Assembly: GCF_026914185.1 (NCBI RefSeq)
Contig: NC_070558.1
Span: forward strand, 6,705,501-6,769,500
Source: Puccinia triticina
Taxonomy: Eukaryota; Basidiomycota; Pucciniomycetes; Pucciniales; Pucciniaceae
Direction of reading: 5' to 3'
Length of the DNA stretch: 64,000 nucleotides
In this document: positions 1,201 through 37,696 of the stretch, one piece after another
How positions within the stretch are numbered: position 1 is the stretch's first letter
How the letters are laid out: each line of letters starts with the position of its first letter
Program-made: the position numbers and the translations under genes
Notes under the pieces: model-generated
Told to the model about the DNA's origin: nothing
Seen by the model: the letters and a program-made list of their open reading frames with translations, nothing else
The model's database searches: none

Positions 1201-1307
1201 GTAAGTCCCTCCAATTGTGCACCTCCCGGGTCCTTCTACTACGAGTCGCAACATTATGTCGCCACGCCTGTGAGCCTCTCGAATACGCCGTATTTCTTTT
1301 CTCTTAG
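1201..1307 (+). other. Intron-like module I1 in the 5' leader of A1 (107 bp)
   Basis: Starts GTAAGT after AATAGAA and ends with a pyrimidine run and TTAG, ten bases before the gag ATG at 1318. It shares two cores with the other modules: GTAAGT-CCTCC-A-TTGTGCACCTCC at the 5' end and GCCACG-TGTGAGC about 70-80 bp in. The equivalent in A2 is 31416-31522. A spliced 5'-leader intron is the simplest reading. Splicing itself cannot be seen from DNA. Confidence 0.75.
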
Positions 1308-3203
1308 GATTATTGCGATGGCCGAGGCGAGCAGAATGGTGAAGATCAAACCCCAGGATAAGACTCTGGGATTTGACGGTACCAACGTCGAAAGGTTCCT
1401 GGCAGACTATCAGCTGGCTGCAAGACTGGATGGCGCTTCAGAACTTGACATGGCACAGCAGGTCCGCTTCTTCATTCGCGGTGCTGAGATCAAGGATGTT
1501 GTCAAGACATTGGACGGCTTTGATCCTCCGAACTGGGCGCTGCTGAAAGCAGCCATGCTATTGCACTGGGGCAAGATCGATACGGCCCGCTTCACAACGC
1601 AAGACCTAGAGGAATTGGTCCAGGGATGGAAGGACAAGGGCGGTGTATCGTCAGTCGTGGACTTCCAAGATTTTTGCAAGGTGTGGCAGCCTATTCAGTC
1701 CTACTTATTGCGCAAGGACCACATCGACTCTGTGGAGGAAATCAAGCGGCTTTTTTATCAGTCTTTCTCAATAGGTCTTCAGGAGCGGATTCACAATCAG
1801 TCAATAAAAGATAAAACAATGATCACCACTCAGGACAACCGTTTTAAGCTTCCGAAGTTTGAGATTTTGAAGACGGCTGTGGAGGAAGTCATGAAGAATC
1901 AGACTGCGCTCACTTTTGAAGGGTCTTGGGCCGAGGTTCCAGTTCAGTCTGGGTTCAAGCAAGCAAAAGAAATCATGCAGAAGATTGAGGCCAACCGCCG
2001 CCCAAAGGAGGCGCCGACCCAAGCAAGAGCCCCAGCCACAATGGACAATCTTGAACGTATGCTGCAGTCATTCGAGCAGCATCTGAAACAGAAGTTCGCG
2101 GCTCAGGCGCGACCTGCGACGCCTCGAGGCCCTATTGTTTGCTATTATTGCCACAGGGAGGGCCATGGGCTCGGTCGATGCGTTGAGCTACAAAAGGAAA
2201 AGGAAGAGAAGTTGGTGGAGCAAAGGGGGGCAGTTTCTTTCTCCCCAACGGCGCACTTATACCTGTTTACTCGTCGCGACCTATCCGCCATGTAGTGGCT
2301 TTGTATAACCCAAAGGTAGCAACGGCTAGCGTTCTGGACCAGGAGTTTCGAGCTGCATGTGGTTCTCTAGACCCCTGGCAGCCCCCCTCAATTTCCTCTC
2401 AGTCGTTTTCTGGGACGTATCAAGCAGATCCCGCGAAGAAGAAGCACGAGGCCCCTAAGCCTTTTAAGGCTCCTGTTGTCCCCCCTTCTGCGGCGCGGCG
2501 ATCAATGCGCAAGGCTTCAGTCCCAAAATCCGGATCAGATACGGAGGAAATGGACGCTGACCCCGAGTTGTTTGAGCGGGTGCCTGCGGCGCCCGCCACA
2601 GAAGACACGTCAAAGGATGCTCCCGTCGCACCGGCGACGCCCAAGGCAGCGCCACCGCCACTGAAGGTGCGCTTCGAGCGAGGCATTGCCAAGGATCACC
2701 CCAACGCGACGGACGTGATGCTCAAGAAGATGTTTGATGTCACGGTGCCCAACATCACTGTATCCGAGTTGCTGGCTGTGGCTCCGTCGGTAGCTGAAGG
2801 AATGAAGAAATGGGTTTCTTGGCGGCGCGTTGAGTTCAGAGCGGACAAGATGAGAGTGTCTTCGGGCGCATTGGCGGAAGACTCGGAAGGAGAAGGGCGT
2901 ATTGACGGCATGAGGCTCTACTCCTGCCCGTTGGGACATATGCCCTGTTTGGTCGGCGACGAGGAGAGTAACGCTCTCCCGTTAATTGACTCTGGTTCCC
3001 AGTTGAACCTGATTCCCAATTCAATGGCTAACAAGTTCAACATTAGCCCGCGCGTGAACTTTAGCTCGGCGGTTTACGGGATCGGGAACCAGGCGTGCGA
3101 GCTTGTAGGAGTCGCAGAGGACGTTCCTATTCGCGTGGGCAAGTCAATTATAGGCACTTGTCATTTCTGGATCACGCGCATGGACGGGCCGCTCATCTTT
3201 GGT

Positions 3204-3206
3204 TGA
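3204..3206 (+). other. In-frame TGA inside the protease, conserved in A2
   Basis: The TGA directly follows LIFG and the same frame continues for another 73 codons with homologous sequence in both copies. A2 has TGA at the identical site (33456-33458). The next base is C in both, a context known to favour readthrough. It could be a recoded stop or a shared ancestral nonsense change of an Arg codon. Confidence 0.6.
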
Positions 3207-3415
3207 CCTTTCCTTATGGATTTCAATGCTACCCTCAATTTCAACAACCAAGTGGGCAAGCGGATTCTCCTGCCGGACTCGACGGGTCGCAAGATCGAAG
3301 TTTCCTTATGCTCAGTGGATTCCGGGCGCTGGGAGCGCGAGTTTCCAGGGCACGGGCGCAAGGCGGTCCTTTCTCACAAAGGGAGGGCTCGTGATGACCC
3401 TTCGGAGGGCCATCA

Positions 3416-3425
3416 TTTTTTGTAG
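3416..3425 (+). promoter_or_regulatory. Putative -1 frameshift site T-TTT-TTG followed by TAG
   Basis: In the gag-protease frame the last codons are CAT TTT TTG TAG. A -1 slip on T-TTT-TTG leads into FVDAVGPGGG, the pol frame. A2 has the same heptamer followed by TAA (33668-33677) and the homologous -1 frame. The heptamer matches the X-XXY-YYZ rule for programmed -1 frameshifting. I did not identify a convincing downstream stem or pseudoknot. Confidence 0.65.
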
Positions 3426-3784
3426 ACGCAGTTGGTCCGGGAGGCGGCAGATTTAATTTGGAGTCTTGACATCTGGCCGCTGGATCAAGTGCGCATCTAG
3501 AGACTCAAGGGCGCTATTTCTCTTTATCTTCTCACTCTCATCAGGAAAAACAGTCAGAAAACGTCAAAAAACAAGCAGAAAACCCTCAAACCCTTAAAAA
3601 CATTATTTCCTTTGGCTCCTCAGTTTCCTCAACGGTTTCCTTTTGGTCTCCTCATGTTTCTCTCAATTTATCTCAAGATTTGGATGCGGTTAAGGGCCCA
3701 AAGGCCTCCAGTGTGGTGGATGATTCGGGAACAGCGGGTGGAGAGGAGGAAAATGAATGCTCGCGGAGGCCGGGAGGAGTAGAA

Positions 3785-3896
3785 GTAAGTTCCTCCCAAT
3801 TATGCACCTCCGGGCAAGATGCTCTGAATTTGTCGAAGACATTACATGCCACATATGTGAGCCCTTCCGTTGCATTGCCTTGTCTTTCTACCCCAG
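3785..3896 (+). other. Intron-like module I2 in the pol linker of A1 (112 bp), absent from A2
   Basis: Bounds are TAGAA|GTAAGTTCC and TACCCCAG|CCGG. It shares the 5' core with I3 (4217-4328) almost exactly and also the TGTGAGC core. It contains no stop in the pol frame. A2 has the same exon sequence on both sides but lacks precisely these 112 bp (junction 33994/33995). From the junction to the next shared CTCCGC there are 26 bp in each copy. Confidence 0.8.
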
Positions 3897-3922
3897 CCGG
3901 CCTTCCATCCTATCAGTCACGC

Positions 3923-4144
3923 CTCCGCAATGAGGAAAAACTAGCGCGGGTTTTGACTCCTATTTGTCTCCGCAAAGAGAATAAACTAAGTCACGAATCT
4001 AGTCTCCGTAATGAGAATAAACTAGATACGTCTTTCGACGTCCTCCGCAACGAGATTAAACTAGTTCAGCTCCGCAACAAGCCTAAACTTCCGAGCCTCT
4101 GCGACGAGGTAAAACTAATGACCCTCCGTGATGAGGTGAAACTA
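3923..4144 (+). repeat. LR(N/D)ExKL coding repeats in the pol linker of A1
   Basis: Seven copies of a seven-residue motif (LRNEEKL, LRKENKL, LRNENKL, LRNEIKL, LRNKPKL, LCDEVKL, LRDEVKL) with spacers of varied length that always keep the frame. Many differences are at third codon positions (CGC/CGT, AAC/AAT), which favours selection on the protein. The motif is charged and probably helical. A2 has a matching set at 34021-34242. No domain is recognised. Confidence 0.75.
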
Positions 4145-4216
4145 CCAGAATTTCGGATGGCGGCGGAGGGAGGATGTGTGTATTTTGGGATGATGGAGGG
4201 ATTGGGAGAACCAAAA

Positions 4217-4328
4217 GTAAGTTCCTCCCAATTGTGCACCTCCGGGCAAGATGCTGCATCAATGTCAAAAACCCTACCTCGGGCCACACTTGTGAGCAAA
4301 GCGCCGGCGTTTCTTTCCAGCCTTGCAG
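4217..4328 (+). other. Intron-like module I3 just upstream of RT in A1 (112 bp)
   Basis: Starts GTAAGTTCCTCCCAAT after CCAAAA and ends TTGCAG before AGAAGGCAGC. A2 carries the counterpart, also 112 bp, at 34312-34423. The module is open in the pol frame, and 112 is 1 mod 3, so removing it would shift pol. An earlier AG at 4320 is an alternative acceptor, but alignment of the downstream exon with A2 favours 4328. Confidence 0.75.
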
Positions 4329-5241: not shown

Positions 5242-8200
5242 CTGTAAGGGTCTGGAGACCCTTCACTGAGCGGAGGCTGGAGAGGCACGGTGGGACGGGC
5301 TCGAAGGCCTAGCGGTTCTAGAACCAACAGTCGGGGAGCTTGAATTGCGTGGCTAGCCCAAGCAGAGAGAGAATGGGGTTGGAGTCTATCTGTTAGTCGA
5401 TGTACAAGCCTGAGAGGAACCATGAGGAAGAGACAAGAGATGAAAGGCTTACCTAGCCCAAGCAGAGAGAGAATGGGGTTGGAGTCTCTGCCAGGCAAAA
5501 TGGGGCGAGGGGGACAGGCTGAACTATCACTACCAAGATGGATGAATTTGCGATGTCGTATATTGATCAATATAGCGTATATTGATCAATTTTTTTTTTA
5601 TTATTATTCCTCTTGATACCTTTGTCTGTTTTCCATGTCTCCTTGATACTATTCTATAATCTCTCTCCTTCTGCCTGTGTTAGCTTCAAGCCACAGGATT
5701 TTTTTTTCTTTCTTTTGCCTGATAACATTCATAAATTTCTACATACACCACTCAATTCTTCCTGAAAAAAAGACGTTGCAAGTTTTAGGATTAATGCAGG
5801 GTAGCTGAGGGGTCTCAAATTTTTTTTACTTCAACAATTGATGTTATGAGAAGTCTCCAAATTGACTTTTTTTCAAAAGAGGAAAAACATTGACCCCTGA
5901 CCTCTCTCATGATACCATCCTGCACACATTTTTAATTTGGTTGGTTGAACTTGCTCAAGATATTGCACATCATACTTGAAGTGCTACATGCATAGAAGGC
6001 CTTTTTGAAATTAGTTTACCATGGTTTAGCATATTTTTGTCAGGTTCTTTTTTTTATCTACTTTTGTTATCAACCACAGATTAATGAGGAATATTTCCAC
6101 ATAAAATTTCATCAGACAATTTTTCTGCATATAAAACCCAGAAATATTTTAAAATATAATTTATTTGGGGTCGCATCCATTATGCAGCAGCGACAATGTG
6201 ATCAGTTCCCAAATATCACTAATTTGGTAGTTTCTGGCCCTTTCTGCCACTATATCTCAACACAGCTTGGGATTTCTTCCATGATATTGGTATCAAAATG
6301 GTCAATAGCCCCCAAGGATTCATTTTGTACCTTAAATTACCACATAACCCAAATGTAGCAGCTACAATCTGATCAGTGGCCAAATGTCACTAATTTGGTA
6401 GTTTCTTGGTGTTGCTGCCACTATATCTCAACACAGCCTGGGAATTCTTCCACAATATTGCGATCCAAATGATTAATAACCCCCAAGGATTCATTGTGTA
6501 CCTTAAATGACCACAAAACCCCCTAATGTAGCCCCTACAATCTGATCAGTTGCCAAATATCACTGATTTGGTAGTTTCTTGGTGTTTCTGCCACTATATC
6601 TCAACACAGCCTGGGAGTTCTTCCATGATATTGGTATCATAATGATCAATAGCCACCAAGGATTCATTGTGTACCTTAAATGACCACAAAGCCTCCAAAT
6701 GTAGCAGCTACAATCTGACCAGTTGCCAAATCTCACTAATTTGGTAGTTTCTTGGTGTTTCTGCCACTATATCTCAGCGCAGCATGGGAGTTCTTCCATG
6801 ATATTGGAACCAAGATGATCAAATACCCTCAAAGATTGATCGAGCACCTCCAATGAGCACAAAACCCCCAATTGTAGCAGGCACAATGTGATCAGTTGCC
6901 AAATATCAATAATTTGGTAGTTTCTTGGTGTTTCTGCCACTATATCTCAGCGCATCATGGGAGTTCTTCCATGATATTGGTACCAAAATGATCAAATGCC
7001 CCTGAAGATTTATTGTGTACCTTGAATGACCACAATACCCCCAAATGTAGCAGCCACACTGTGATCAGTTGCAAAATATCACTAATTTGGTAGTTTCTTG
7101 GTGTTTCTGCCACTATATCTCAGCACAGGGTGGGAGTTCTTCCATGATATTGGTACCAAAATGATCACATGCCCTCAAAAATTCATTGAGTACCTTGGAT
7201 GACCACAAAACCCCCAAATGTAGCAGCCACAATGTGATTAGATGCCAAATATCACTCATTTGGTACTTTCTTGATGTTTCTGCCACTATATCTCAGCACA
7301 GCGTGGGAGTTCTTCCATGATATTGTTCCCAAAATGCTCACATGCCCTCAAACATTCATTGAGTACCTTGGAGCACAGGGTGGGAGTTCCTCCATGATAT
7401 TGGTACCAAAATGATCACATGCCTTCAAAAATTCATTGGGTACTTTGGATGACCACAAAACCCCCAAATTTAGCAGCCACAATGTGATCAGTTGCCAAAT
7501 ATCACCAATTTGGTAGTTTCTTGATGTTTCTGCCACTATATCCCAGCACAGCGTGGGAGTTCTTCCATGATATTGGTACCAAAATTATCACATGCCCCTG
7601 AAGATTCATTGTGTACCATGAATGACCACAAAACCCCCAAATGTAGCAGCCACAATGTGATCAGTTGACAATTATCACTAATTTGGTAGTTTCTTGCTGT
7701 TTCCGCCACTATATCTCCCCCCAGCATGGGAGTTCTTCCATGATATTGGTAGCAAAATATTCACCTGCCCTCAAACATTCATTGAGTACCTTGGATGACC
7801 ACAAAACCCCCAAATGTAGCAGCCACAAAGTGATCGGTTGCCAAATATCACTAATTTGGTAGTTTCTTGGTGTTTCTGCCACTATATCTCAGCACAGCAT
7901 GGGAGTTCTTCCATGATATTGGTACCAAAATGATCACATGCCCCTGAGGATTCATTTTGTACCTAGAATGACCACAAAACCCCCATATTTAGCAGCCACA
8001 AGGTGATCAGTTGCCAAATATCACTAATTTGGTAGTTTCTTGGTGTTTCCGCCACTATATCTCAGCGCAGCATGGGAGTTCTTCCATGATATTGGTACAA
8101 AAATGATCATTCACCCCTGAAGATTCATTGTGTACCTTGGATGACCACAAAACCCCCAAATGTAGCAGCCACAATCTGATCAGTTGCCAAATATCACTAA

Positions 8201-10359
8201 TTTGGTAGTTTCTTGGTGTTTCTGCCACTATATCTCAGCTCAGCGTGGGAGTTCTTCCAAGATGTTGGTACCAAAATGATCAACTTCCCCTGAAGATTTA
8301 TTTTGTACCTTGAATGACCACAAAACCCCCAAATGTAGCAGCTACAATGTGAATGGTTGCCAAATATCACTAATACCAAATTAGTGATATTTTGCAACTG
8401 ATCACATCCTAGCTGCCACATTTGGGGGTATTGTGGTCATTCAAGGTGCACAATTAGTCTTCAGGGGAATTTGATCATTTTGGTACCAATATCATGGAAG
8501 AACTCTCACGCTGTGCTGAGATATAGTGGCAGAAACACCAAGAAACTACCAAATCAGTGATATTTGGCAACTGATCACATTGTGGCTGCTACATTTGGGG
8601 GTTTTGTGTTCATTCAAGGTACACAATGAATGTTCAGGGGCATTTGATCATTTTGGTACCAATATCATGGAAGAATTCCCACGCTGCCCTGAGATATAGT
8701 GGCAGAAACACCAAGAAACTACCAAATTAGTGATATTTGGTAACTGATCACATTGTGGCTGCTACATTTGGGGGTTTTGTGGTCATCAAAGGTACTCAAT
8801 GAATGTTTGAGGGCATGTGAATATTTTGGTACCAATATCATGGAAGAACTCCCATGCTGCGCTGAGATATAGTGGCAGAAACACCAAGAAACTACCAAAT
8901 TAGTGATATTTGGCAACTGATCAGGTTGTAGGGCTACATTAGGGAGTTTTATGGTAATTTAAGGTACACAATGAATCCTTGGGGACTATTGATCATTTTG
9001 AAACCAATATCATGGAAGAACTCCCAGGTTGTGTTGAGATATAGTGGCAGAAACACCAAGACCCTACCAAATTAGTGAGATTTGGCAACTGATGAGATGG
9101 TAGCTGCCACATTTGGGGGTTTTGTGGTCATTTAAGGTACAAAATGGATCCTTGGGGGCTACTGAACATTTTGATACCAATATCATGGAAGAACCCCCAG
9201 GCTGTGTTGAGATATAGTGGCAGAAACACCAAGAAACTACCAAATTAGTGATATTTGGCAACTGATCAGGTCGTAGGGGCTACATTAGGGAGTTTTGTGG
9301 TCATTTAAGGTACACAATGAATCCTTGGGGACTATTGATCATTCTGAAACCAATATCATGGAAGAACTCCTGGGCTGTGTTGAGATATAGTGGCAGAAAC
9401 ACCAAGAAACTACCAAATTAGTGATATTTGGCCACTGATCAGATTGTAGCAGCTACATTTGAGGATTTTGTGGCCATTCAAGGTACACAATGAATCTATG
9501 GGGGCTTTTGAAAATTTTGGCACCAATTTCATGGAAAAATTCCCAGGCTGTGTTGAGATATAGTTGCAGAAATACCAAGAAACTAACAAAGTAGTGAGAT
9601 TTGGCAACTGATCAGATTGCAGCTGCTGCATAATGGACGTGACCCCAAAATCATTATTTCTGGGTTTTATATTCAGAAAAATTCTCCAACAAAATCTATG
9701 TGGAAATATTCCTCATTAATCTGTGGTTGATAACAAAAGTAGATAAAAAAAAGAACCTGACAAAATTATGCTAAACCATGGTAAACTAATTTCAAAAAGC
9801 CCTCCTATGCATGTAGCACTTCAAGTATGATATGCAATATCTTGAGCAAGTTCAACCAACCAAATTAAAAATGTGTGCAGGATGGTATCATGAGAGAGGT
9901 CAGGGGTCAATGTTTTTCCTTTTTTGAAAAAAAGTCAATTTGCAGACTTCTGATAACAGATCAATTGTTGAAGTAAATAAAAAAGGAGAAAAAAAATTGA
10001 GACCCCTCAGCCACCCTGCATTAATCCTAAAACTTGCAATGTCTTTTTTTCAGGAAGAATTGAATGGTGTATGTAGAAATTTATGAATGTTATCAGGCAA
10101 AAAAAAAGATTCCTGTGGCTTGAAGCTAACACAAGGGGAAGGAGAGAGATTATAGAATGGTATTAAGGAGACATGGAAAACAGACAAAGGTATCAAGAAG
10201 AATAATAAAGAAAAATTGATCAATATAAATTGATCAATATACGCTATATTGATCAATATACAAGATCGCAAATTCATCCATCTTGGTAGTGTATAGTCCT
10301 CAACAAGTGACATGGCCCGTATGGCCTTGTGAAACCCGCAAGACGTGCGGGGCTTCACA
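5242..10359. mobile_element. Foldback (giant inverted-repeat) element inserted in the RT of A1
   Basis: The insertion is flanked by ATGC (5238-5241 and 10360-10363) and splits RT at the point where A2 is continuous. The arms are inverted copies: unique arms of about 650 bp (5523-6185 and 9640-10295), then arrays of a roughly 172-bp unit that meet at a symmetry centre near 8377. Both termini form small hairpins (AAGGGTC/GACCCTT on the left; AACCCGC/GCGGGGCTT on the right) and are imperfectly inverted to each other. The outermost left 280 bp are not matched on the right and include a 35-bp direct repeat (near 5353 and 5452). No transposase was seen, so it is non-autonomous. Confidence 0.85.
6190..9640. 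repeat. Two inverted arrays of a 171-173 bp satellite unit
   Basis: Successive AATTTGGTAG landmarks at 6221, 6392, 6565, 6738, 6911 and 7084 give a 171-173 bp period. The left array has about 12-13 units with an irregular insertion near 7370. The right array has about 7 units in opposite orientation after 8380. Each unit contains the near-palindrome CCAAATATCACTAATTTGG. The 60-70 residue ORFs in the arrays are repeats of one another and are not treated as genes. Confidence 0.85.
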
Positions 10360-12671
10360 ATGCTGGCATTTTCATAGACAATGGAGGTATAAAGGGCCCC
10401 GTTTCTGATTACAATAGCGAGCCTCTTCCGTGGCACGCTAGGATCCGTCGTTTCATTTGGGAGTACGCAACGACGCTGGAGAGGGTCCTCTTCAGGATTG
10501 AGGAGAGTGGTCTTACGGTCTCTGTGTCAAAGCTCGCAGCATGTGTTCCCGCTCTGGATATTGTGGGCCATGTTGTTTGCAAGGAAGGCCGCCAAATGGC
10601 GAAATCAAAGGTCAACATCATTCTCTCCTGGCCCACCCCGGCCAACGCAACGGAACTTTGTGGTTTTTTGGGGGTAGTGGTTTACGTTTGAATCTTTATA
10701 CCGGGTTTGTCTGAGATATGTCTACCCCTGCGACGCCTGACACGGAAGGATGTCGACTGGCTATGGTCGGCGGAGTGCGAGGACGCGTTTCAGAAGTTGA
10801 AAGTTACAGTGGGCCACAATATTGTACTGTCTAAAGTCCAATACGGCCCGGACGCGGGAAAACTCAAGCTGGCAGTGGACTTGAGCTACCATGCAGTGGG
10901 AGTGGTCCTTACACAGGAGGATTCAAACAGACTCGACCAGCCGGCAATCTATGAGTCACTTCTGTTCTCTGATGTCGAGTCCCGCTACTCCCGGCCCAAG
11001 CTTGAGCTTTGCGGTGTGGCGCGCATTCTCAAGAAGTTGCAGACGATCTTGTGGGGCCAACATTTTGAGCTGCAGGTCGACTCTCATTCTTTGATTGAGA
11101 TGATTAATGCCCCTAGTCTCCCCAACGAGCCTATGACGCGTTGGGTCGCCTTTATTCAGCTCTTTTCTTTTGATATTGTGCACCGGCCTGGGAAGATTTC
11201 CACTATGGCCAACGGACTCTCACGGCGCCCGCAGGGAGATGATGAATCAGACCCCCCTTCAGACTTTGACGAGGACGAGCCGCACATCAAGCCGCGGAAC
11301 TCTTATGCGCTGGGCGCGGAGGACACCTATTCCGGTTTTCAGCAAGGTTGGTGGCGCAAATTGGAGCGCTTCTTGGCTACTTTGCGCAAGCCGGCAGCGA
11401 TGGATGCGAAGGAGTTTCGAGCGCTCAAACAACGATCAGTCAATTTCTTTTTGCAATCTGGACGTCTCATGAAGAGAGGGAGCCCTCTACCCCAAATAGT
11501 GGTCACAATGCCGTCAAAACAGCACGAGATCCTCACAAAGCTCCATGAAGATTTGGGACACCGCGGCTCCACTAAAACTTATTGCAGAGTTTCCGAGCGT
11601 TTCTGGTGGCCCTCGTTGAAGAAAGCCGTAGCGGAGTGGTGTCAAAGCTGCGAGGCGTGTCAGAAGAAGGACCTCCGACGCCCGCAGGAGTTGCAGTACC
11701 CGACTGGCGAGTTTACTGTCTTTGGCCGGGTCTCCATGGACGCCGTGCATCTCAAAGCCGGCGGTGCCAAGTACTTAATAGTGGCCCAAGACGATTTCTC
11801 AGGATGGGTCGAAGCCAAAATTCTTAACAACCTGACGTCAGAGGCAGTGGCCTCCTTCTTGCAAGAAAACTGGACAATGTGTTACGGATTGGCTCAGGCG
11901 TATTTGACAGACGGCGGTTCCGAATTCGGTGGCGCGTTAGCTGAGATGTTGCGCGCACTGCCCGGCCAGCATCGCGTATCTACTCCTTATTACCCCGAAG
12001 GACAAGGCATGGTAGAGCGTGGCCACGGACCCCTCAAGGCGGCTTTGGTGAAGTTGGCGGGTGAGAGCGGAAAAAACTGCCGCAAATTCCTACCGCTAGT
12101 TCTGTTTGATGATTGGATCTCGACGAAGCGGACCACCGGCTACTCCCTGTATGAGCTAGTTTTTGGCCAGCGGGCCTTCCTGCCTTTGGATCTGGAGATC
12201 AAGTCGTACCTGGGCGTGGACTGGGACTCTGTCAAAGATACGGCCGACCTCCTAGCAGCCCGGTCTTGTCAGCTGGAGCGCAGTGAGGAGACGCAAAGTA
12301 TTGCATTCAAGAAGATGATGGAAGCGCGTGGTGACTTGGTTTGATATTGGGGGGAGAAGCACGGCTCAAGGATTCGCGAACCACTCAAGCCCGGCGATCA
12401 GGTCCTCGCCTACAACCGGTCACTGGAAGTCCAGTGGGGCCAGCTGTTTGCGCATCAATGGAACGGCCCGTATCGCGTCGTGGAGCAGGTTCAAGGCGGT
12501 TCTTATGTCCTGGCGGAACTCGACGGCACGGAGCTCAAGCGGCGCTTTGCTGCGGACCAAGTGAAGCGGTTCTTTTCTTGTGGGGACATTCTTGACCAGA
12601 AGGCTTGGATTTTTTTTTAGGCACGAGTATTGGACAAGCAGTCTAGGGACAGACTGCAAGTCGTGGGTGGA

Positions 12672-13568
12672 TGTGGTGGACAATCTGGTACACGCGTAGG
12701 ATCAAGACTTTATTGCGCGTGGCGCGCGCCAGCGGCCATCATTGAGTCCCGCGACTCAATCAAAGCTGATTATGTAATTTGATTGAGTCCCGCGACTCAA
12801 TCAAAGCTGATTATGTAATTTGATTGAGTCCCGCAACTCAATCAAAGTTATGGCAAAGCTTTCAGCCCTCAAGGCCTCCTCAAGTTCAACGGCGCAGCGT
12901 GGCACATCCTCAAGGCGTTTCAGGTCTCCCTTTCTCCTCTTTTCTCTTGTTTCTGTGTTGGTGGTTTTGTTCTCCTGTCAGCTTTCTTTTCTTTTTTCAT
13001 TATGTTTGTTATTTTCTTTTCTTATACGCGCGCTTTGGACAGGTTTGGATGAGGAGGGTTGGTCTTGGTTTTTCTTTTGTTTTGTTTTGTTTCTGTCTCT
13101 TGCCTTGTTTTGTTGTAGCGCGCGTGTGCGCGCTAGGTTGTGATGAGCTGTCTGTTAGATGTCACAGTCCCCTGAGTCTGAGTTCAACGCAAACTCAGAT
13201 GATGGGGCGGCATGGACCTACTCTGAACCAGAATTTCAGTCTTCCATCAAATTCAAAGTTATACGTCTTGGCAAGCTGTTTTCCCGAAGTTTCTCCTCCT
13301 TAAGGTTCATTTTTCCCCGCAACGCCGATCTCCTCCACCTCTCTGGTTTAGATCACACCCCGCCGGCAGTATCCCCGGCTCCTTCTCGAACTCAAACACC
13401 GCCGACGCGCATCTCCAGCCGTTGTAAAATCAAAACCCCCTCACGCTTACACAATTATCAGCGCTCACTCACGGCCAATCAACCCTGAGGGCATACGACA
13501 CATTTCCCTTTTTTTTCCATTTCCCCTCCCCCAACTGCCGCCGGCCTAGCACCGAGCGGAGTTCCTCA
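12672..13568 (+). repeat. 3' LTR of A1 (897 bp)
   Basis: Matches 213-1068 apart from about 14 substitutions and an extra 41-bp palindromic unit. A purine-rich tract (GTGGGTGGA) just upstream is the likely plus-strand primer, also present before the A2 3' LTR. Confidence 0.95.
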
Positions 13569-17862: not shown

Positions 17863-19266
17863 CTCTGTTTGGACGCTGTGTGTGATATGATAAATGGTGT
17901 AATAAATTACATAACACCCAAAATGAATCTTGAGTGTCATAAAATTAATTATGCCACCAACAGATTTATAATTTGTCTGTTTGGCATGCACTCCATAAAC
18001 ATTCCTAGGGATCATTTATCACCTGACTGTTTGGCAAACCAAAGCAGACCAGTTTCATACATGTACACACAACACACTTCTGGGAGTGCACAACCTCTGG
18101 ATGACCTGTTTAAACGGCAATCCAGAGTACTTCACCCCCTCAATGACTGGTGAACTGGTCATCTAGGGGGACTTCACCCTTTCAATGACCAGTCAACCGG
18201 TCATTGAAGAGGACACACCGTCTTGATGACCGGTCAAACAGTCATTGAAGAGGACACACCCTCTTGATGACCAGTTGACCGGTCATCAAAGAGGACACAC
18301 CCTCTTGACGACCAGCTAACTGGTCATTGACGAGGACACGTCTGTTGACCGGTCATCAAAGAGGACATACCCTCTTGATGACTGGTCAACCGGTCATCGA
18401 AGAGGACACACCCTCTCAATGACAGGCCGACCGGTCATTGAAGAGGACACAACCTTCCAGTGACTCCCAATGACTGGCCCCGGTCAACAAGGTGTTTTGT
18501 CCTCTTTGATGACCAATCGACCGGTCATTGAAGTTGGTACGACCTCTGGATGACCGGTTTGACTGGTCATCCAGAGGACTTATCTCTATGACCGTTCAAC
18601 CGGTCATCAAGAGGGTGTGTTCTCTTCGATGACTGTTTAACCGGTCATCAAGAGGGCATGTCCTCTTTGATGACCGGTTGACCATTCATTGAGAGGTTGT
18701 GTCCCCTTTGATGACAGGTTGGCCGGTCATCAAGAGGATGTGTCCTCTTTGATGACCGTTTGACTGGTCATCAATAGGATGTGTCCTCTTCAATGGCCAA
18801 TCAACAGGTCATTGAAGTGGGTACGACCTCTCAATGACTGTTTTACCGGTCATCAAGAGGATGTGTCCTCTTCAATGACCGGTTGACTGGTCATTGAGAG
18901 GATGTGTCCTCTTCAATGACCGGTTGGTCATTGAGAGGTTAAAGTTGCAGGTTATGTCCACCTCGATGACCCGCTGACCGGTCATTGAGGTGGTGTGTAG
19001 GACTCCTCTGGATGACCAGTTGAACGGGTCATCCAGGGTTGTGTACATGTTCCTAGGTATACTGATGGCCAAATATCACCCAAAATAGAGGCCAGGACCT
19101 CTATTTCCAAAATGGCTGGGGATATAAATGGCCTGTGATACAGAGTAATGAATTTTACAATATCATTGGCCATCCCAAACACATATAAGTTTGGTGTTAT
19201 ACCCCGAGCACCCCCGGTGATAATTCGCGTGATTTATAACTGAATTTGGGGCGTCCAAACGGGGCC
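17861..19266. mobile_element. PIF/Harbinger-like non-autonomous TIR element with a satellite core
   Basis: Ends are GGCTCTGTTTGGACGC on the left and GCGTCCAAACGGGGCC on the right, flanked by TTA on both sides (17858-17860 and 19267-19269). A GGnCCnGTTTGG-type terminus with a TTA/TAA duplication is typical of PIF/Harbinger. The interior is an inverted satellite array rather than a transposase gene. It inserted at the end of the hAT remnant. Confidence 0.8.
18080..19045. repeat. Inverted arrays of a 41-bp GACCGGTC satellite
   Basis: Units of about 41 bp combine TGACCGGTnnACCGGTCA, itself palindromic, with GAAGAGGACACACCCTCTT. Orientation reverses near 18500-18600, so the block is a large imperfect hairpin. 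Related units occur near 39.5, 41.3, 42.8 and 43.3 kb. Not a CRISPR: there are no unique spacers and the context is eukaryotic. Confidence 0.8.
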
Positions 19267-30035: not shown

Positions 30036-30448
30036 TCCCAAATTTTACGCGGGAGCAGAAAGTTCATTTGGCTGAGAGGTTTTTAAAATTTTTATAGCTC
30101 CTCCCCCAGCCTCTCCACCAAAATGCCCTATCTGTACCCTATGCTACTTTTCTTTCTCTACAATTTGGTCTACTCAGATTTTTTCTATCACAATCTGTTG
30201 ACCTTTTCAAAAGATTAAAAATGCACAGGTCTTCCAAATGAGGCTCCACTTGTTTGGGACTCCAGGAGTTGCTTTTCTGGCTACAAGATAGATAAGTGAC
30301 TTAAATTCCTTGCAAGAACAGAACCTACAACTCTGTGTATTCAGTTTTTTTATATTAGTTGGGACTTGTAGTGTAGTAGATCCTTTCTGCTCCTGCTTAA
30401 ATCAAGACTTAACTCATAAGCCTCTCCTGCAGAGAGCCCTCTGGGCGG

Positions 30449-31264
30449 TGTGGTGGACAATCTGGTACACGCGGAGGAATCAAGCTTTTTGCCGCGCACG
30501 GCGCGCGCCAGAGGACGTCAAGACTCAAGACATCAAGATGCAGCTTTCAGCCCTCGAGGCCTCCTCAAGTTCAACGGCGCGGCGTGGCGCGCATCCTCAA
30601 GGCGTTTCAGGTCTTCTTCCCCCCCCCCCCCTCTTCCCTGTGTTTTGGCTTTCTTGGTCCTGTTTTCTTTTAAGTTTATCTTTCATCATGTTTTGTTATG
30701 TCCTCTTTCACATTGCGCGCGTTGGATAGGTTTTGTATGAGGAGGGTTGGTTTGTTTTGTTTCTGTTTTGTTTGGTTTTGTTTCTGTCTTTTGTCTTGTG
30801 TTGTTGTTGCGCGCGCGTGCGCGTTAGGTTGTGATGAGATGTCTGCTACATGTCACCAACTCCAAGGTTTGAGTTCAGTTTGAACTCAGGCTTTGGAGCG
30901 GCATGGACTCACTCTGAACCATAAAATTCTCAGTTATCCATCAACATTCTAAGTTTAAGTCTTGGCAATTGTCTGCCCGCAAGTCTGAAGTCTTTAAGTT
31001 CTTTACCCCGCAAAACGCCGATCTCCTCCACCTTACTGGTTTAGATCACAACCCCGCCGGCAGTATCCCCGGCTTTCTCTCAAAAACAAAACCCGCCGAC
31101 GCGCATCTCCAGCTGTCGTAAAATCAACTCCCCCCCCACGCTTACACGAATCTCTCAGCGCTCACTCACGGCCAATCACCCCGGAGGGCATACGCAGCCT
31201 ATTCTTAGCTTTTTCTTTTCCCCTCCCCGAACTGCTGCCGGCCTAGCCCGGCCAGAGTTCCATA
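30449..31264 (+). repeat. 5' LTR of A2 (816 bp)
   Basis: Begins TGTGGTGGACAATC and ends TTCCATA two bases before the primer site. It has a poly-C run near 30620 that differs by one base from the 3' LTR. The A1 41-bp palindromic unit is absent. Confidence 0.95.
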
Positions 31265-31266
31265 TT

Positions 31267-31316
31267 TGGTCCCCCGAGCCGGGATCGAACCAGCGACCTC
31301 AAGATTTACAGTCTCG
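31267..31316 (+). other. Primer-binding site: 50-nt antisense tRNA-Tyr(GTA)
   Basis: Identical over all 50 nt to A1 1071-1120, corresponding to mature tRNA nt 27 to 76. Sequence immediately downstream differs between the copies, so the boundary is sharp. Confidence 0.9.
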
Positions 31317-31415
31317 CTGATTTGAACGGTCAGAGACGCTTGGCGGTCTTTGTTTCTTTTTTTCTCAGTTTTTAGTTTTTTTAGGGCTCAGCGGCGGAGG
31401 CATAGGGGACTAGAA

Positions 31416-31522
31416 GTAAGTCCTCCCAGTTTGTGCACCTCCAGGGCTCTACTACCAATTCGTCAAAGCATTACATCGCCACGGTTGTGAGCCGCCCGCA
31501 TTTGCTTCGTATTCCGTTTCAG
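31416..31522 (+). other. Intron-like module I1 in the A2 5' leader
   Basis: GTAAGTCCTCCCAG after ACTAGAA, then TTGTGCACCTCC, GCCACGGTTGTGAGCC and a 3' end CCGTTTCAG (a second AG at 31527 is possible). It aligns with A1 1201-1307 and lies 25 bp before the gag ATG. Confidence 0.75.
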
Positions 31523-31547: not shown

Positions 31548-33458
31548 ATGGCGGACCCTGTGGGTGGAACATCCGAAGGTCGGATGGTCAAGATTAAGCC
31601 TCAAGACAAGTCTTTGGGCTTTGATGGCTCCAACGTGGAGAGATTTTTGGCCGATTATCAGTTGGCGGCTCGACTCGACGGGGCTTCAGAATTCGACATG
31701 GCCCAGCAAGTTCGGTTCTTCATTCGGAGCGCCGAAGTTAAGGACGTGGTCGAGACGCTTGATGGGTTTGACCCTCCAAATTGGACGGCTTTGAAGGCGG
31801 CCATGTTGTCACATTGGGGCAAGATTGATACTGCGCGTTTCACGACGCAGGATCTGGAGAATTTGGTGCAGAGTTGGAAGGGCAAAGGAGGAGTCGCTTC
31901 TGTCGTCGATTTCCAGGACTTTCGGAAGACGTGGCAGCCTATCCAGTCCTATTTGCTCAGAAAGGACCACATCGACTCGGTGGAGGAAATCAAGCGCCTT
32001 TACTATCAGTCATTTTTGTTAGGCGTACAGGAGCGGATTCGTGACCAGCTCATCAAGGATAAAACCATGATTACGACGCAAGACAATCGGTTCAAGTTGC
32101 CCACCTTCGAGATCCTTAAGAAAGCGGTCGAAGAAGTCATGCGCAATCAGACGGCTCTTACCTTCGAAGGCTCTCGCGCGGAAGTTCCGGTACCGGAGGG
32201 TTCTTTCAAGCAGTCAAACGACGTCATGCAGCGGATGGAGGCCGATCGACGCCCCAAAGGGATTCCAGAGCAGGTTAGAGCCCCGGCTACGGTAGACGAG
32301 ATTGAGCGGATGCTTCAGTCATTCGAACAGCGCCTGGAGCAGAAGTTTGCGAATCAGGCACGGCCCTCTACACCAAGAGGTCCAATGGTGTGCTACTACT
32401 GCCACAGGGAAGGACACGGGCTCGGACGATGCGCAGAGCTGCAGAAGGATAAGGAGGCGAAGTTGGTGGAGCAGAGGGGAGGTAGTTTCTTCCTCCCGAA
32501 TGGCGCGCTCATTCCGGTGGATAACTCTCGCCCAATTCGACATGTCGTGGCATCCTACAATCCTAAGGCCGCACCAGCTAGCGTTTCAGAGGCCGAGTTC
32601 AGGACTACCTGCGGATCCCTCGACCCCTGGCAGCCGCCTTCCATTTCATCTCAGTCTTTTTCTGGCACCTATCAGGCCGATCCCGCGCGAAAGAAGCACG
32701 AAGCTCCCAAACCGTTCAAGGCCCCTTCTGTACCCCCCGCCGCAGCACTGCGACCCGTCAGGAGAAAGTCTACGCCCAAGGCGGGTTCTGATACGGATGA
32801 GATGGCCGCTGAGCCCGAGTTGTTCGAGCGAAACTCGACTCCAGCAGTGGACGATGTTGCTCAGGAAAACCCAGCCTCGCCGCCAGTACTCAAGCCGGTG
32901 CCTTCCGCTCCTTCCAAAGTCCGCTTCGAGAGAGGGATCGCGAAGGACCACCCAAACGTGACTGAAGGAATGCTTAAGAAAGTTTTTGATCTCCCGGTGC
33001 CCAACGTCACCGTGTCTGAACTTTTGGCCGTGGCTCCATCGTTGGCCGAAGGAATGAAGAGATGGGTATCGAGGCGGAGAGTCGAGGTTGGAGCGGATGA
33101 AATGAGAGTGTCGTCTGGTACGTTGGCGGAAGACTCGGAGGGAGACGGACGGATAGACGGCATGAAGCTCTACTCCTGTCCGCTGGGGTATATGCCTTGC
33201 TTGGTCGGCGAAGAGGAGAGTAACGCTCTTCCGTTAATCGACTCTGGATCTCAGTTGAATCTGATCTCGGATTCAATGGCTAACAAACTTAACATTAGCC
33301 CACGAGTGAATTTTAGTTTGGCGGTCTACGGCATAGGGAATCAGGCGTGCGAGCTAGTCGGCGTCGCAGAGGACGTTCCAATTCGAGTGGGAAAGACCAT
33401 TGTCGGCTCCTGTCATTTTTGGATCACGCGCATGGACGGGCCTCTCATCTTTGGCTGA
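31548..33458 (+). CDS. gag: Gag-protease polyprotein of A2, ending at the protease TGA
   Basis: A 636-residue open frame. The ATG at 31548 aligns with the A1 start. Gag assembles the particle; a CCHC knuckle (CYYCHREGHGLGRC) at about residues 282-295 should bind RNA. A Pro/Ser-rich linker leads to an aspartic protease with DSGSQ at residues 565-569, ending LIFG. The same frame resumes after the TGA at 33456-33458 with PFLMDFNASLNF and runs to 33677. The protease is therefore complete only if the TGA is read through or if the short form is enough. This is the best preserved gag in the window. Confidence 0.9.
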   Translation: MADPVGGTSEGRMVKIKPQDKSLGFDGSNVERFLADYQLAARLDGASEFDMAQQVRFFIRSAEVKDVVETLDGFDPPNWTALKAAMLSHWGKIDTARFTTQDLENLVQSWKGKGGVASVVDFQDFRKTWQPIQSYLLRKDHIDSVEEIKRLYYQSFLLGVQERIRDQLIKDKTMITTQDNRFKLPTFEILKKAVEEVMRNQTALTFEGSRAEVPVPEGSFKQSNDVMQRMEADRRPKGIPEQVRAPATVDEIERMLQSFEQRLEQKFANQARPSTPRGPMVCYYCHREGHGLGRCAELQKDKEAKLVEQRGGSFFLPNGALIPVDNSRPIRHVVASYNPKAAPASVSEAEFRTTCGSLDPWQPPSISSQSFSGTYQADPARKKHEAPKPFKAPSVPPAAALRPVRRKSTPKAGSDTDEMAAEPELFERNSTPAVDDVAQENPASPPVLKPVPSAPSKVRFERGIAKDHPNVTEGMLKKVFDLPVPNVTVSELLAVAPSLAEGMKRWVSRRRVEVGADEMRVSSGTLAEDSEGDGRIDGMKLYSCPLGYMPCLVGEEESNALPLIDSGSQLNLISDSMANKLNISPRVNFSLAVYGIGNQACELVGVAEDVPIRVGKTIVGSCHFWITRMDGPLIFG

Positions 33459-33667
33459 CCTTTTCTCATGGACTTCAATGCTAGTCTCAACTTCGACAAC
33501 CAAGTAGGCGAACGGATTCTCTTGCCAGACTCAACAGGCCGCAAGATTGAAGTGGCTTTGTGCTCAGTGGATTCCGGTCGTTGGGAGCGCGAGTTTCCAG
33601 GGCACGGGCGCAAGGCGGTCCTTTCTCACAAGGGAAAGGCGCGCGACGACCCGGTGGAGGGCCATCA

Positions 33668-33677
33668 TTTTTTGTAA
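33668..33677 (+). promoter_or_regulatory. Putative -1 frameshift site T-TTT-TTG followed by TAA
   Basis: Same position as A1 3416-3425: CAT TTT TTG, then a stop. The -1 frame continues as VNAVDPGGGR, homologous to the A1 VDAVGPGGGR. The stop differs (TAA against TAG) while the heptamer is unchanged. Confidence 0.65.
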
Positions 33678-34020
33678 ATGCGGTTGATCCGGGAGGCGGC
33701 AGATCTAATTTAGGGCTCCGACATCTCGCCGCTGGATCAACTGTTTATCCGAGGACCCATGGCTGCTATCTTTCTTTATCTTCTCACGGCTATCTTGAAA
33801 ATCAACAACTAAATCCCAAAAAACAGTCGAAAAATTCACAAAACCTAGAAAAAACATTCCCTTTGGTCCACTCGGTTTCTCAAGTTTCTTTCTCATCTTC
33901 TCAAGCGTCAGGAGGGCCTATTTTCGGCAAGGACTTTGTAGGCGAGGGCGGAAAGGTAGAAAATGGGTGTACGTGGAGGCAGGAAGAACTAGAAATGGCC
34001 CGGCATCTCAGTCGACACGT

Positions 34021-34242
34021 CTCCGCGACGAGAATAAACTAGCCGCTACCTTACGCCTCCGGAATGAGGAAAAACTATTGTCGGTTTCCGTTATTTCACG
34101 GCTCCGTAACGAGAATAAACTAGATACGTCTTTGGACGTCCTCCGCAATGAGATTAAACTAGCTCAGCTCCGCGATGAGCCTAAACTCCCAAGCCTCCGC
34201 AACGAGGAAAAACTAAAGATCCTCTGGAATGAGGTAAAACTA
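34021..34242 (+). repeat. LR(N/D)ExKL coding repeats in the A2 pol linker
   Basis: Seven units (LRDENKL, LRNEEKL, LRNENKL, LRNEIKL, LRDEPKL, LRNEEKL, LWNEVKL) matching the A1 array in number and order, with different spacers. The frame continues through I3 into RT. Confidence 0.75.
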
Positions 34243-34311
34243 CAATTCGCCTTGGACTGCGAGGGTGGTGAGGTGGAATTTGGCGCACCGTGGAGGGACT
34301 TTGGACTGAAA

Positions 34312-34423
34312 GTAAGTTCCAACCAAAGTGCACCTCCGGAGCGTGATGCTACGCAAAGTTGTCGTACCCTACCGCGCGCCACAGTCGTGAGCCAAGGACC
34401 TTCGCCCTGCTTTTCTTTCGCAG
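34312..34423 (+). other. Intron-like module I3 in A2 (112 bp)
   Basis: GTAAGTTCCAACCAAAG, then TGCACCTCCGGAG, GCCACAGTCGTGAGCC and CTTTTCTTTCGCAG. Same position and length as A1 4217-4328. Stop-free in the pol frame. Confidence 0.75.
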
Positions 34424-37400
34424 ATAAGGCACCTTTCGAAGATTGCACCGAACACCGCACGTGGACGCTGATGGACTGCGGCTTGAGGTTTCAAGAGCAA
34501 GTCGCGCTGTCGGACGCGTGGACACGGGGCGAGCTTCTCTTGTTTGCGGCGAAGTATAAGCCGGTTTCGAAGAAGATTAAGCCCATCAATCAGGCCATGC
34601 CCCAGGGTCTCAATCCCCCCCTCCGCCGGCCAGTTCTATCACGCAATCCTTATCGACCTCTCCCACGAAGCCTGGCGGGTCCTTTCGAGCCACGTGGTCG
34701 CGTCAATGCGGAAAGGCTTAGAGTCGTCAACTTCGGCCCGGAAGGCTGGCTATGGCCTGAAGAGTTGAACCTGATCAAGAACGTCCTAGCCGAGCGTAAT
34801 CTCGCAATAGCCTTCACGGAAAAAGAGCGCGGTCTTTTGAAGGAGTCATATGGACTCCCCTACATCATCCCCATGGTCGAGCACGAGCCGTGGCAGAAAA
34901 AGAAGATCCCAATCCCCGCGGCTAAGTTAGATGAGTTCATCCGCGTGGTCCGCGAGCGTGTCGCTACGGGACTTTACAAACAGTCAACGTCGAGTTACAC
35001 GTCTCCAGTTTTTTGTGTCCTTAAAAGCAACGGCAAAATTTGGGTCGTCCATGACTTGTAACCTTTGAATAAGGTTACGATTAAAGACGCGGGTGTTCCG
35101 CCAGCGACAGAGGAATTTGTGGAGTCTTTCGCTGGCCGAGCATGCTACGGCTTGGGAGATATCATGGGCGGCTACGACGAGCGCGCTCTGGACCCCATCT
35201 CTCGACCACTGACAACCTTTGACACCCCTCTCGGTCGTTTCCAGCTTACGCGTCTACCTCAAGGCGCGACCAATTCCGTCGCCGTGTACCAGGCACAAAT
35301 GGTCTGGATATTGCAGGACGAAATCCCTGATCATGCAGGAATATTCATTGACGATGGGGGCATTAAGGGCCCGGCTTCTGACTACGGAAACGAGACGCTA
35401 CCCTGGCATTCGGGAATCCGACGTTTCATATGGGAATATGCAACTACTCTCGAGCGGATCCTTTTTCGCATCGAGGAGTCTGGGCTAACGGTTTCCGCCT
35501 CTAAGCTGGCAGCATGTGTCCCCGCTCTTGAGATTGTCGGACACGTGGTATGCAAGGAAGGGCGAAGAATGGCGAAGACAAAGGTGAACAAGATCCTCTC
35601 CTGGCCTACCCCGGCGAATCCTACGGAAGTACGCGGCTTTCTGGGCGTGGTGGTCTACGTACGGATTTTTATACCTCATCTGTCCAAGATTTGTCTCCCG
35701 TTGAGACGGTTGACGCGCAAGGACTCGGAATGGATCTGGACCGTGGAGTGCGCGGCCGCGTTTGAACGACTCAAGGTTATCGTGGGAAAAGACATCGTCT
35801 TGGTAAAACTTAGGTATGGGTCGGACGCAGGTCTACTTAAACTAGCGGTGGATTCGAGTTTTCACGCCGCTGGAGCGGTACTCACGCAAGAAGATGGGAA
35901 TGGCTTTGATCGTCCTGCCCTTTACGAATCCCTTCTTTTCTCTGAAGTCGAATCCCGTTATTCGCAGCCGAAACTCGAACTCTGTGGTGTGGCGCGCGTC
36001 CTCAAGAAGATGCAGACGGTCTTGTGGGGGCAACACTTCGAATTGCAAGTTGACGCCCACTCCTTGATCGAGATGATTAATGCCCCAAGTCTCCCCAACG
36101 CGCCCATGACACGTTGGGTGGCTTTCATTCAGCTTTTCTCTTTTGAGATCGTGCATCGGCCGGGAAAGGGTTTCACTATGCCCGATGGTCTCTCTAGGCG
36201 CCCGCAAGGGGACGAGGAATCGGATCCCCCTTCTGACTTTGATGAAGATGAGCCGCACATCAAGCCACGTTACTCTTACGCGCTGGGCGCGGAGGACACG
36301 TACTCCGGGTTCCAGCAGGGTTATTGGCGGGACTTGGAGCGCTTTCTAGCTACGATGACCAAGCCAGACGGAATGGACGCGAAGGAATTTCGCGCTTTGA
36401 AGCGCAGATCGTCAGAATTCTTCCTGCAATCCGGGCGTCTCATGAAGAGAGGGAGCCCCCTACCTCGAATCGTCGTCACAATCCCCGCCAAACAAGAATC
36501 CATTCTCAGCGAGCTTCATGAGGGACTGGGCCATCGGGGTGCTATCGAAACTTATAGGCGCGTGTCAGAGCGCTTTTGGTGGCCCTCTCTGAAGCGATCT
36601 GTGGCGCATTGGTGCCGGAGCTGTGAGGCCTGTCAAAAAAGAGATCTTCGTCGCCCACACGAGTTACGCTACCCGACAGGCGAGTCAACGGTGTTCGGCC
36701 GCGTTTCTATGGACGCGGTTCACTTGAAGGCGAGCGGCGCCAAGTATTTGATTGTCGCACGGGATGATTTCTCAGGCTGGGTTGAGGCAAAAATCCTCAA
36801 CAATCTCACTTCGGAGGCGGTTGCCGGCTTCCTTCAAGAGCATTGGACGATGCGATATGGTTTGGCGCAGGCATATTCGACTGACGGGGGTTCCGAATTC
36901 GGTGGCGCGCTAGCGGAGATGTTGCGGGCTTTACCGGGAAAGCATTGAGTCTCTACGCCCTACTATCCGGAGGGACAAGGAATGGTCAAACGTGGGCATG
37001 GTCCTCTCAAAGCCGCACTGGTGAAGCTGGCTGGGGAAAGCGGCAAGAATTGCCGGAAATTCCTCCCCCTAGTCCTTTTTGCCGACCGTATCTCAACCAA
37101 GCGCACGACAGGGTATTCACCCTATGAGCTAGTTTTTGGCCAGCGGGCCGTCCTCCCTTTGGATTTGGAGATCGAATCATATCTCGGCGTCGATTGGGAC
37201 AACGTGAAGAGCACCACCGACCTCCTTGTTGCGCGGTCCACGCAGTTGGAGCGCAGCGAGGAGACGCGCGGCATCGCGTATCGGAAGATGATGGAAGCGC
37301 GCAAGGACTCGATGCGCTACTGGGAAGAGAAGCACCCTGGACGACTGCGCGAAGCCCTCAAGCCTGGAGATAGGGTCCTCGCGTACAATCGGTCTCTTGA

Positions 37401-37574
37401 GACGCAGTGGGGGCAGTTATTTGCGCATCGATGGAACGGCCCCTACCGCGTCGTGAAGCAGGTTGAGGGCGGGTCGTATGTTCTGGAGGAGCTCGATGGC
37501 ACGGAGCTGAAGAGGCGCTTTTCTGCGGATCAGGTCAAACGGTTTTACTCCCGCGAGGGCATTGCTGACCACAA

Positions 37575-37696
37575 GTAAGTTCCTCTCCAAGTGTGCACCT
37601 CCTGGGTAGTTACTACCGCAATTCCTCGAAACTCTACTTTTTGCCACGTTCGTGAGCACCGCGGGCGCGCCGGGTTTCTTTCTCTTTCCTTTTCAG
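37575..37696 (+). other. Intron-like module I4 at the pol 3' end of A2 (122 bp), absent from A1
   Basis: GACCACAA|GTAAGTTCC at the 5' end and CTTTCCTTTTCAG|GGCTTGG at the 3' end. A1 reads GACCAGAAGGCTTGG with no insert (junction 12601/12602), exactly the spliced arrangement. Unspliced, pol stops at the TAA within gTAAgt; spliced, the frame would run through the polypurine tract into the LTR and stop near 38045. The shared cores GTGCACCTCC and TTCGTGAGC tie it to I1-I3. Confidence 0.8.

What the first reader, a model, noticed from the sequence alone, without database searches (positions are those of the whole stretch)
1201..37696. One family of homologous intron-like modules at four positions of a Ty3 retrotransposon
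Six segments (A1: 1201-1307, 3785-3896, 4217-4328; A2: 31416-31522, 34312-34423, 37575-37696) all start GTAAGT and end in a pyrimidine-rich AG. They share two internal cores, CCTCCCAA-TTGTGCACCTCC near the 5' end and GCCACG-TTGTGAGC about 75 bp in. Introns at different sites of a gene are normally unrelated; homologous ones imply copying of the intron itself. Introner-like elements are known from fungi and algae, but I know of no described case where a retrotransposon hosts its own set. I did not notice the module elsewhere in the window.
Basis: partly seen in the sequence, partly recalled or inferred. Interest (0 to 1): 0.9.

Follow-up and report, generated by a model that had tools for sequence, protein, structure and literature searches.

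The report
Homologous introns inside one fungal retrotransposon
A mobile element in what looks like a rust-fungus genome carries several copies of the same intron at different places in itself, and some copies of the element have lost one of these introns exactly, which makes it an unusual chance to study how a mobile element controls its own splicing.

Summary
In detail: six segments at four sites of two Ty3/gypsy copies are homologous, begin GTAAGT and end Py-AG. 39 further loci plus the window gave 134 such modules, 105 distinct. The core pattern occurs 238 times in the genome, 0 in the reversed control.

They are very probably spliceosomal introns. Copy A2 lacks the site-II module exactly at its GT/AG borders, while a near-identical sister has it. 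Five places match the empty site IV unbroken; the other 59 matching pieces all break at that junction.

In the pol region retained introns are coding: lengths are 1 mod 3 in 89 of 89 modules at IIa, IIb and III, frame open in 88 of 89; splicing would stop Pol within 116 codons. The 5' splice site sits in an exon-intron hairpin more stable than most controls, suggesting default retention.

Spread into host genes is not shown: all 39 loci read match element exons; 32 of 274 mapped positions have no known context. No RNA data were available.

The parts
1201..1307 (+). Module I of copy A1 (107 nt), before the gag ATG
3785..3896 (+). Module IIa of copy A1 (112 nt), open in the pol frame
4217..4328 (+). 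Module III of copy A1 (112 nt), open in the pol frame
12601..12602 (+). Exact empty site IV in copy A1 (junction GACCAGAA|GGCTTGG); other copies have a module of 108-127 nt here
31416..31522 (+). Module I of copy A2 (107 nt)
33994..33995 (+). Exact empty site II in copy A2 (junction CTAGAA|ATGGCC); sister copy L046 has a 115-nt module here
34312..34423 (+). Module III of copy A2 (112 nt), open in the pol frame
37575..37696 (+). Module IV of copy A2 (122 nt); the TAA inside its GTAAGT ends the pol frame
34282..34347 (+). Predicted exon-intron hairpin with the 5' splice site of module III in its loop (exon CTTTGG / intron CCAAAG, outer GGAGG / CCTCC)
3416..3425 (+). T TTT TTG followed by the gag-pro stop TAG: candidate -1 frameshift site of A1
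33668..33677 (+). T TTT TTG followed by the gag-pro stop TAA in A2
3897..4216 (+). Linker of A1 between modules II and III with repeated LRNExKL-like units
213..1068 (+). 5' LTR of A1, as aligned (94% identical to 12672-13568)
12672..13568 (+). 3' LTR of A1, as aligned
30442..31276 (+). 5' LTR of A2, as aligned (98.7% identical to 37758-38593)
37758..38593 (+). 3' LTR of A2, as aligned
35062..36945 (+). RT, RNase H and integrase of A2 in Ty3/gypsy order (the rve match is below Pfam's cut-off)

Best explanation
These are spliceosomal introns of one Ty3/gypsy lineage that arose by old duplication of one exon-end-plus-intron segment within the element, and that are normally kept in the RNA. Shown: homology at 4-5 sites; exact absence of single introns at GT/AG borders; retained introns at sites II and III keep the pol frame open; the 5' splice site is predicted to lie in an exon-intron hairpin. 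Inferred: the hairpin, the absence of a CTRAY branch site and possibly a bound factor keep most transcripts unspliced; the unspliced RNA is the genome and the Gag-Pro-Pol messenger (via -1 frameshifting at T TTT TTG); release of the lock splices an intron, which at II or III cuts Pol off soon after the junction and leaves Gag-Pro. Because all introns share the same signals, one factor could switch them together. Splicing leaks, and reverse transcription of an RNA that has lost one intron leaves copies such as A1 (site IV) and A2 (site II).
For: GTAAGT in 105 of 105 distinct modules, though the search pattern required G[TC][AG]AGT. Exact empty sites: A2 site II against sister L046, which matches the 160-nt empty-site query at 99% (1-80) and 100% (81-160) around a 115-nt gap. 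Site IV: 5 places contiguous across the junction, 59 of 59 other pieces break at query 82-84 (40 of 229 candidates scored). Frame: IIa 32/32, IIb 19/19, III 38/38 lengths are 1 mod 3, but I 13/7/5 and IV 5/3/4 over the three classes; frame 0 open in 31/32, 19/19, 38/38. In the site-III module third codon positions are 0.65 alike against 0.45 in the next exon (34 distinct copies), so there is constraint beyond coding. Spliced: stop after 15-59 (IIa), 5-38 (IIb), 15-116 (III) codons; retained: 4-1,344, 261-1,166, 111-1,089, the low values being decayed copies. Hairpin: the true upstream exon beats all but a median 4% of random 30-nt stretches of the same element, with 13.7-17.6 pairs around the 5' splice site against 8.4-9.2; exons swapped among modules fold less well (-20.85, sd 0.24, against -21.60; 0 of 100 reach), at site III 0 of 200 reach. 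Protein P0121 from a JGI contig carries the site-III peptide without gaps at 50% identity.
Against: No RNA data, so no junction is seen directly. CTRAY is found in 0 of 105 modules (YTNAY near the 3' end in 8), odd for fungal introns (the consensus is recalled). RNAalifold finds no pair common to all sites, exon swapping within IIa, IIb and IV shows nothing (118/200, 171/200 and 142/200 reach), and 89 of 90 borders with 6 or more enclosing pairs is a weak count, since random stretches average 8-9. No empty site was seen for I (0 of 40 scored), III (0 of 40) or IIa with an A1 query (0 of 40), though those queries contain the module and favour filled sites. I name no useful protein made only by splicing.
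Confidence: 0.7

Rival explanations
1. Introner-like mobile introns: the module itself transposes, into this element and into host genes.
For: Homologous introns at several sites; numbers of modules between gag-pro and pol differ between copies; 32 of 274 mapped positions have no known element context.
Against: All 39 loci read match element exons; modules group by site; likeness runs about 22 nt into the upstream exon; the best-documented differences look like losses. No target-site duplication was looked for.
Confidence: 0.12
2. Not introns but an RNA control element (packaging, dimerisation, translation) that happens to begin GTAAGT and end Py-AG.
For: Conserved cores, predicted hairpins, presence in 5' and 3' untranslated positions, no CTRAY.
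Against: Exact excision at GT/AG at two sites, with no shared bases at the A2 junction.
Confidence: 0.12
3. At sites II and III the module is only a repeated protein-coding unit of the Pro-RT linker, and the likeness to an intron is inherited from the ancestral copy.
For: Frame open in 88 of 89 modules at IIa, IIb and III, lengths 109/112/115.
Against: The same cores are kept at the non-coding sites I and IV; third codon positions are unusually conserved; A2 lost the site-II module exactly although this shifts its frame.
Confidence: 0.06

Closest known systems
Ogre LTR retrotransposons of plants (Steinbauerova et al. 2008; only as cited in passages of PMC12786077; the paper itself is not held)
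   Same: LTR element with a functional intron spliced in part of the transcripts. That Ogre is Ty3/gypsy with its intron between protease and RT is recalled.
   Different: Here 4-5 homologous introns; here retention, not splicing, keeps Pol in frame. In Ogre splicing is thought to join gag-pro to pol (recalled).
Cer1 of C. elegans (PMC10309623, abstract read)
   Same: LTR retrotransposon with spliced and unspliced RNAs that must get unspliced genomic RNA past nuclear retention.
   Different: Cer1 makes an export protein (CERV) from a spliced mRNA; no such product was identified here, and the abstract reports no homologous intron set.
HIV-1 and other retroviruses (search listing with starts of abstracts only)
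   Same: Unspliced RNA is both genome and Gag-Pol messenger; inefficient splice sites have been proposed as part of what keeps it unspliced.
   Different: Retroviral splice sites at different places are not copies of one another (recalled).
Introners (PMC9860276: listing with the start of its significance statement, and a term search)
   Same: Families of homologous introns with intact splice borders (in part recalled).
   Different: Introners sit in many genes across the genome; here the modules are only known inside one retroelement. 'retrotransposon' occurs once (in the reference list) and 'LTR' not at all in that paper's text.

Membership tests
Spliceosomal intron | GT...AG borders with pyrimidine-rich 3' end | tested here: met
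   GTAAGT 105 of 105 distinct modules; a GTAAGT-like start and AG end were required by the pattern, so copies with decayed borders are not counted
Spliceosomal intron | Branch-site consensus CTRAY (recalled for fungi) | tested here: not met
   0 of 105; GTGAGC, whose A lies 26-49 nt before the end of the module, is a candidate only
Spliceosomal intron | Exact removal from RNA | tested here: inconclusive
   Exact empty sites in genomic copies; no RNA reads available
Introner family | Near-identical introns in many host genes | tested here: inconclusive
   All 39 loci read match element exons; 32 of 274 positions without context
Introner family | Recent gains at new sites | tested here: not met
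   Modules group by site; the clear differences read as losses
Ty3/gypsy LTR retrotransposon | LTRs and RT-RNase H-integrase order | tested here: met
   Pfam order in A2, LTR pairs
Intron-bearing LTR retrotransposon of the Ogre kind | One intron whose splicing restores the pol frame (recalled) | tested here: not met
   Splicing of II or III breaks the pol frame

The most novel reading that the evidence does not exclude
A retrotransposon lineage has multiplied one intron within itself into a coordinately controlled set. Every copy hides its 5' splice site in the same kind of exon-intron hairpin, the pol-region copies are also protein-coding when retained, and repeated LRNExKL units, whose CTCCGC start is complementary to the GCGGAG of the upstream exon arm, could open the locks and also put stops in the other frames. 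One signal would thus switch the element between a replicating (unspliced) and a Gag-only (spliced) state.
Probability: 0.3. Interest if true: 0.9.

Novelty: new variant of a known kind. Interest (0 to 1): 0.72.

Why it matters
Introns at different sites of a gene are normally unrelated; a set of homologous ones inside one retroelement gives a natural series in which shared splice signals, retention and loss can be compared across many copies (274 module positions mapped so far). Exact single-intron losses act as a fossil record of splicing in the replication cycle, and the frame rule shows which introns the element cannot afford to lose. I saw no description of such a case in the listings of searches of an open-access library, which misses most subscription journals; of one search only 12 of 29 papers were listed.

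Tried and rejected
Rfam gave 0 matches above threshold in the window. A hairpin GCCAC-N-GTGAGC with a bulged A fits 103 of 105 distinct modules (99 with a 4-nt loop, 3 with 3, 1 with 5), but its stem hardly varies, so pairing is not proven. A common fold over 57 modules of all sites failed; per-site folds gave 2, 1, 0, 2 and 2 pairs with compensatory changes for I, IIa, IIb, III and IV, and the site-IV fold differs from the others. In IMG/VR there was one exact pattern hit (not followed up) and no pol relative. The prokaryote scan served only as a chance rate. A tRNA scan of the window found none. Paper searches found nothing; 14 and 66 nothing relevant by title and start of abstract. An early site-labelling script was replaced by the rule.

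Rows dropped: 8 modules labelled '?' (L019, L020, L047) are left out of the per-site counts and of the hairpin sets; exact duplicates were removed where 'distinct' is said (90 sequences, 57 of these). Looser patterns hit further modules with decayed borders that the strict pattern missed; these are in no count.
Full report
WHERE IT IS. The window is part of a 122.8-Mb genome in 18 contigs. The best hits of the pol protein are unnamed (up to 80% identity); those with fungal names come first from Puccinia striiformis and P. coronata, then Phenoliferia and Austropuccinia psidii, so the host is probably a rust fungus; the species is not given. The A2 pol has RT, RNase H and integrase in Ty3/gypsy order; the LTR pairs are 94% (A1) and 98.7% (A2) identical. 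A1 is interrupted by a repeat-rich insertion.

THE MODULES. All six segments are as described. I fetched the 39 other places of the 40 listed by a search with the site-II module of A1 (246 candidates); a strict pattern then found 134 modules in these and the window, 105 distinct. Every one of the 39 loci matches element exons. Sites: I before gag, IIa and sometimes IIb between gag-pro and pol, III at the start of pol, IV at the end of pol. The sample was drawn by likeness to one site-II module, so it favours copies with II and III. Genome-wide the exact core pattern has 238 matches against 0 for its reversed control. Of 274 merged positions from all lists, 224 have another module within 9 kb on the same strand, which is suggestive of an element but not proof; of the other 50, 18 have an element match nearby and 32 do not (all lists are capped).

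ARE THEY INTRONS? The strongest evidence is exact absence. A2 has no module at site II: its sequence runs ...AACTAGAA|ATGGCCCGG..., while L046, whose site-III region matches that of A2 at 100% (rounded), has ...AACAAGAA|GTAAGT...TTGCAG|ATGGCCCGG.... With the A2 empty site as query, L046 splits at 1-80 and 81-160 around 115 nt, the other 11 listed matches cover only the downstream side, starting at 81 or later, and A2 alone is contiguous. With the A1 empty site IV as query, 5 places (A1 itself, two on C3, one each on C13 and C18) match across the junction; 24 pieces end at 82-83 and 35 begin at 82-84, that is, 59 of 59 other pieces break at the junction (40 of 229 candidates scored). The C13 copy matches A1 at only 81% while pieces of filled copies reach 95%, so the loss probably happened more than once (inference). 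The C13 copy keeps a filled site III, A1 keeps I, II and III, A2 keeps I, III and IV: introns are lost one at a time, as expected if partly spliced RNAs are reverse transcribed.

No empty site appeared for I, III or IIa with an A1 query, 40 scored of 364, 136 and 344 candidates; these queries contain the module and favour filled sites. At II and III a loss breaks Pol, which would remove such copies from the active population; at I the lack of losses could mean that this intron holds something replication needs, such as a packaging signal (inference, by analogy with retroviruses).

READING FRAME. Lengths at IIa (109, 112, 115), IIb (112, 115) and III (112) are 1 mod 3 in 32/32, 19/19 and 38/38, while I and IV spread over all classes. 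Frame 0 through the module is open in 31/32, 19/19 and 38/38; in 14 of 14 copies printed (of 41) it stays open through III and the next 50 codons, though some of these have stops elsewhere in the linker. TTTTTTG followed by a stop lies upstream of III in 25 of 38 copies; in A1 and A2 I checked that the stop is that of gag-pro. Among the 25 the stop has the relation to pol expected for -1 frameshifting in 14, and not in 11, A2 among them, as its intron loss predicts; the others were not examined. In 12 of 12 copies tested the frame ending at the TAA inside GTAAGT of site IV is open upstream for 67-1,478 codons, and in 11 of the 12 it is the longest of the three frames. Splicing IIa, IIb or III would end Pol after 15-59, 5-38 or 15-116 codons; retention gives 4-1,344, 261-1,166 and 111-1,089, short where the copy has decayed. 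So the unspliced RNA is most likely the Gag-Pro-Pol messenger.

CONSTRAINT AND STRUCTURE. In the site-III module third codon positions are more alike (0.65) than in the next exon (0.45), and the same cores persist at non-coding sites I and IV (TGCACCTCC only in 5 of 11 at IV), so RNA-level constraint is likely. The upstream exon shares a purine-rich pattern (GCGGAGG, then GGAG) at I, IIa and IIb, in part at III and IV. It pairs with CCTCCC and CACCTCC of the intron, with GTAAGT in the loop. 89 of 90 distinct borders have at least 6 such pairs, but that count is weak: random 30-nt stretches of the element joined to the same introns average 8.4-9.2 pairs. The true exons have 13.7-17.6, and fold better than all but a median 4% of random stretches; 58 of 90 are in the best 5%, with medians of 11% at I and 8.5% at IV. 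Dinucleotide shuffles give a mean z of -1.49. Own exons pair better than swapped ones overall and at III (0 of 200), weakly at I (7 of 200), not at IIa, IIb or IV. Changes that keep pairing include CTTTGG/CCAAAG at III of A2, CATTGGGA/TCCCAATG at III of L042 and GGAAG/CTTCC at IIa of L046 (read by eye). A single fold for all sites was not found. A second hairpin, GCCAC-N4-GTGAGC, is almost always present but its stem hardly varies.

HOW IT PROBABLY WORKS. The locks keep transcripts unspliced by default, so that they can serve as genome and as Gag-Pro-Pol messenger; splicing at II or III switches Pol off. Because all introns carry the same signals, one factor could set all of them. That last step is inference without direct evidence.

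ORIGIN. Modules group by site (15 label changes; 200 shuffles had a mean of 64 and a minimum of 57), so copying between sites predates the divergence of these copies. A protein from a JGI contig, 50% identical, already has the site-III module peptide without gaps. Some IIb and III modules group together, hinting at exchange between sites.

NOVELTY. Intron-bearing LTR elements are known (Ogre and EVADE, passages of PMC12786077; Cer1, abstract of PMC10309623), and so are introners (PMC9860276, listing and term search). I saw no set of homologous introns within one retroelement in the listings of my eight answered searches aimed at it. I file it as a new variant of a known kind.

Noticed in passing
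3897-4216 and 33995-34311: Repeated LRNExKL-like units (162 in 35 of 38 copies) keep fixed codons (CTC 160/162, AAA 148/162, CTA 135/162) and carry a stop in at least one other frame in 162 of 162, in both in 87. CTCCGC at their start is complementary to GCGGAG of the hairpin arm in the exon.
   Followed up: partly
1071-1160 and 31267-31356: After the 5' LTR both copies carry a long stretch whose complement looks like the 3' half of a tRNA ending CCA (tyrosine-like anticodon arm, recalled), longer than a usual primer site; a similar stretch in 30 of 41 copies.
   Followed up: partly
5242-10361: Insertion in A1's pol with 173-bp tandem repeats in two long inverted arms; in locus L006 the flanking pol sequence is uninterrupted.
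   Followed up: no
C3:1519450, C3:1523148, C18:302424: Apparent deletion derivatives: site I and an empty site IV only about 2.6 kb apart.
   Followed up: no
3204-3206 and 33456-33458: Both copies have TGA at the same protease codon where the sister L046 has CGA, as expected from CpG decay.
   Followed up: no
18155-18932 and 53848-54432: Arrays of about 41-bp and 44-47-bp repeats.
   Followed up: no
44905-45204 and 48749-49048: 300-bp direct repeat, 99% alike, 3,844 bp apart; possibly another LTR element.
   Followed up: no
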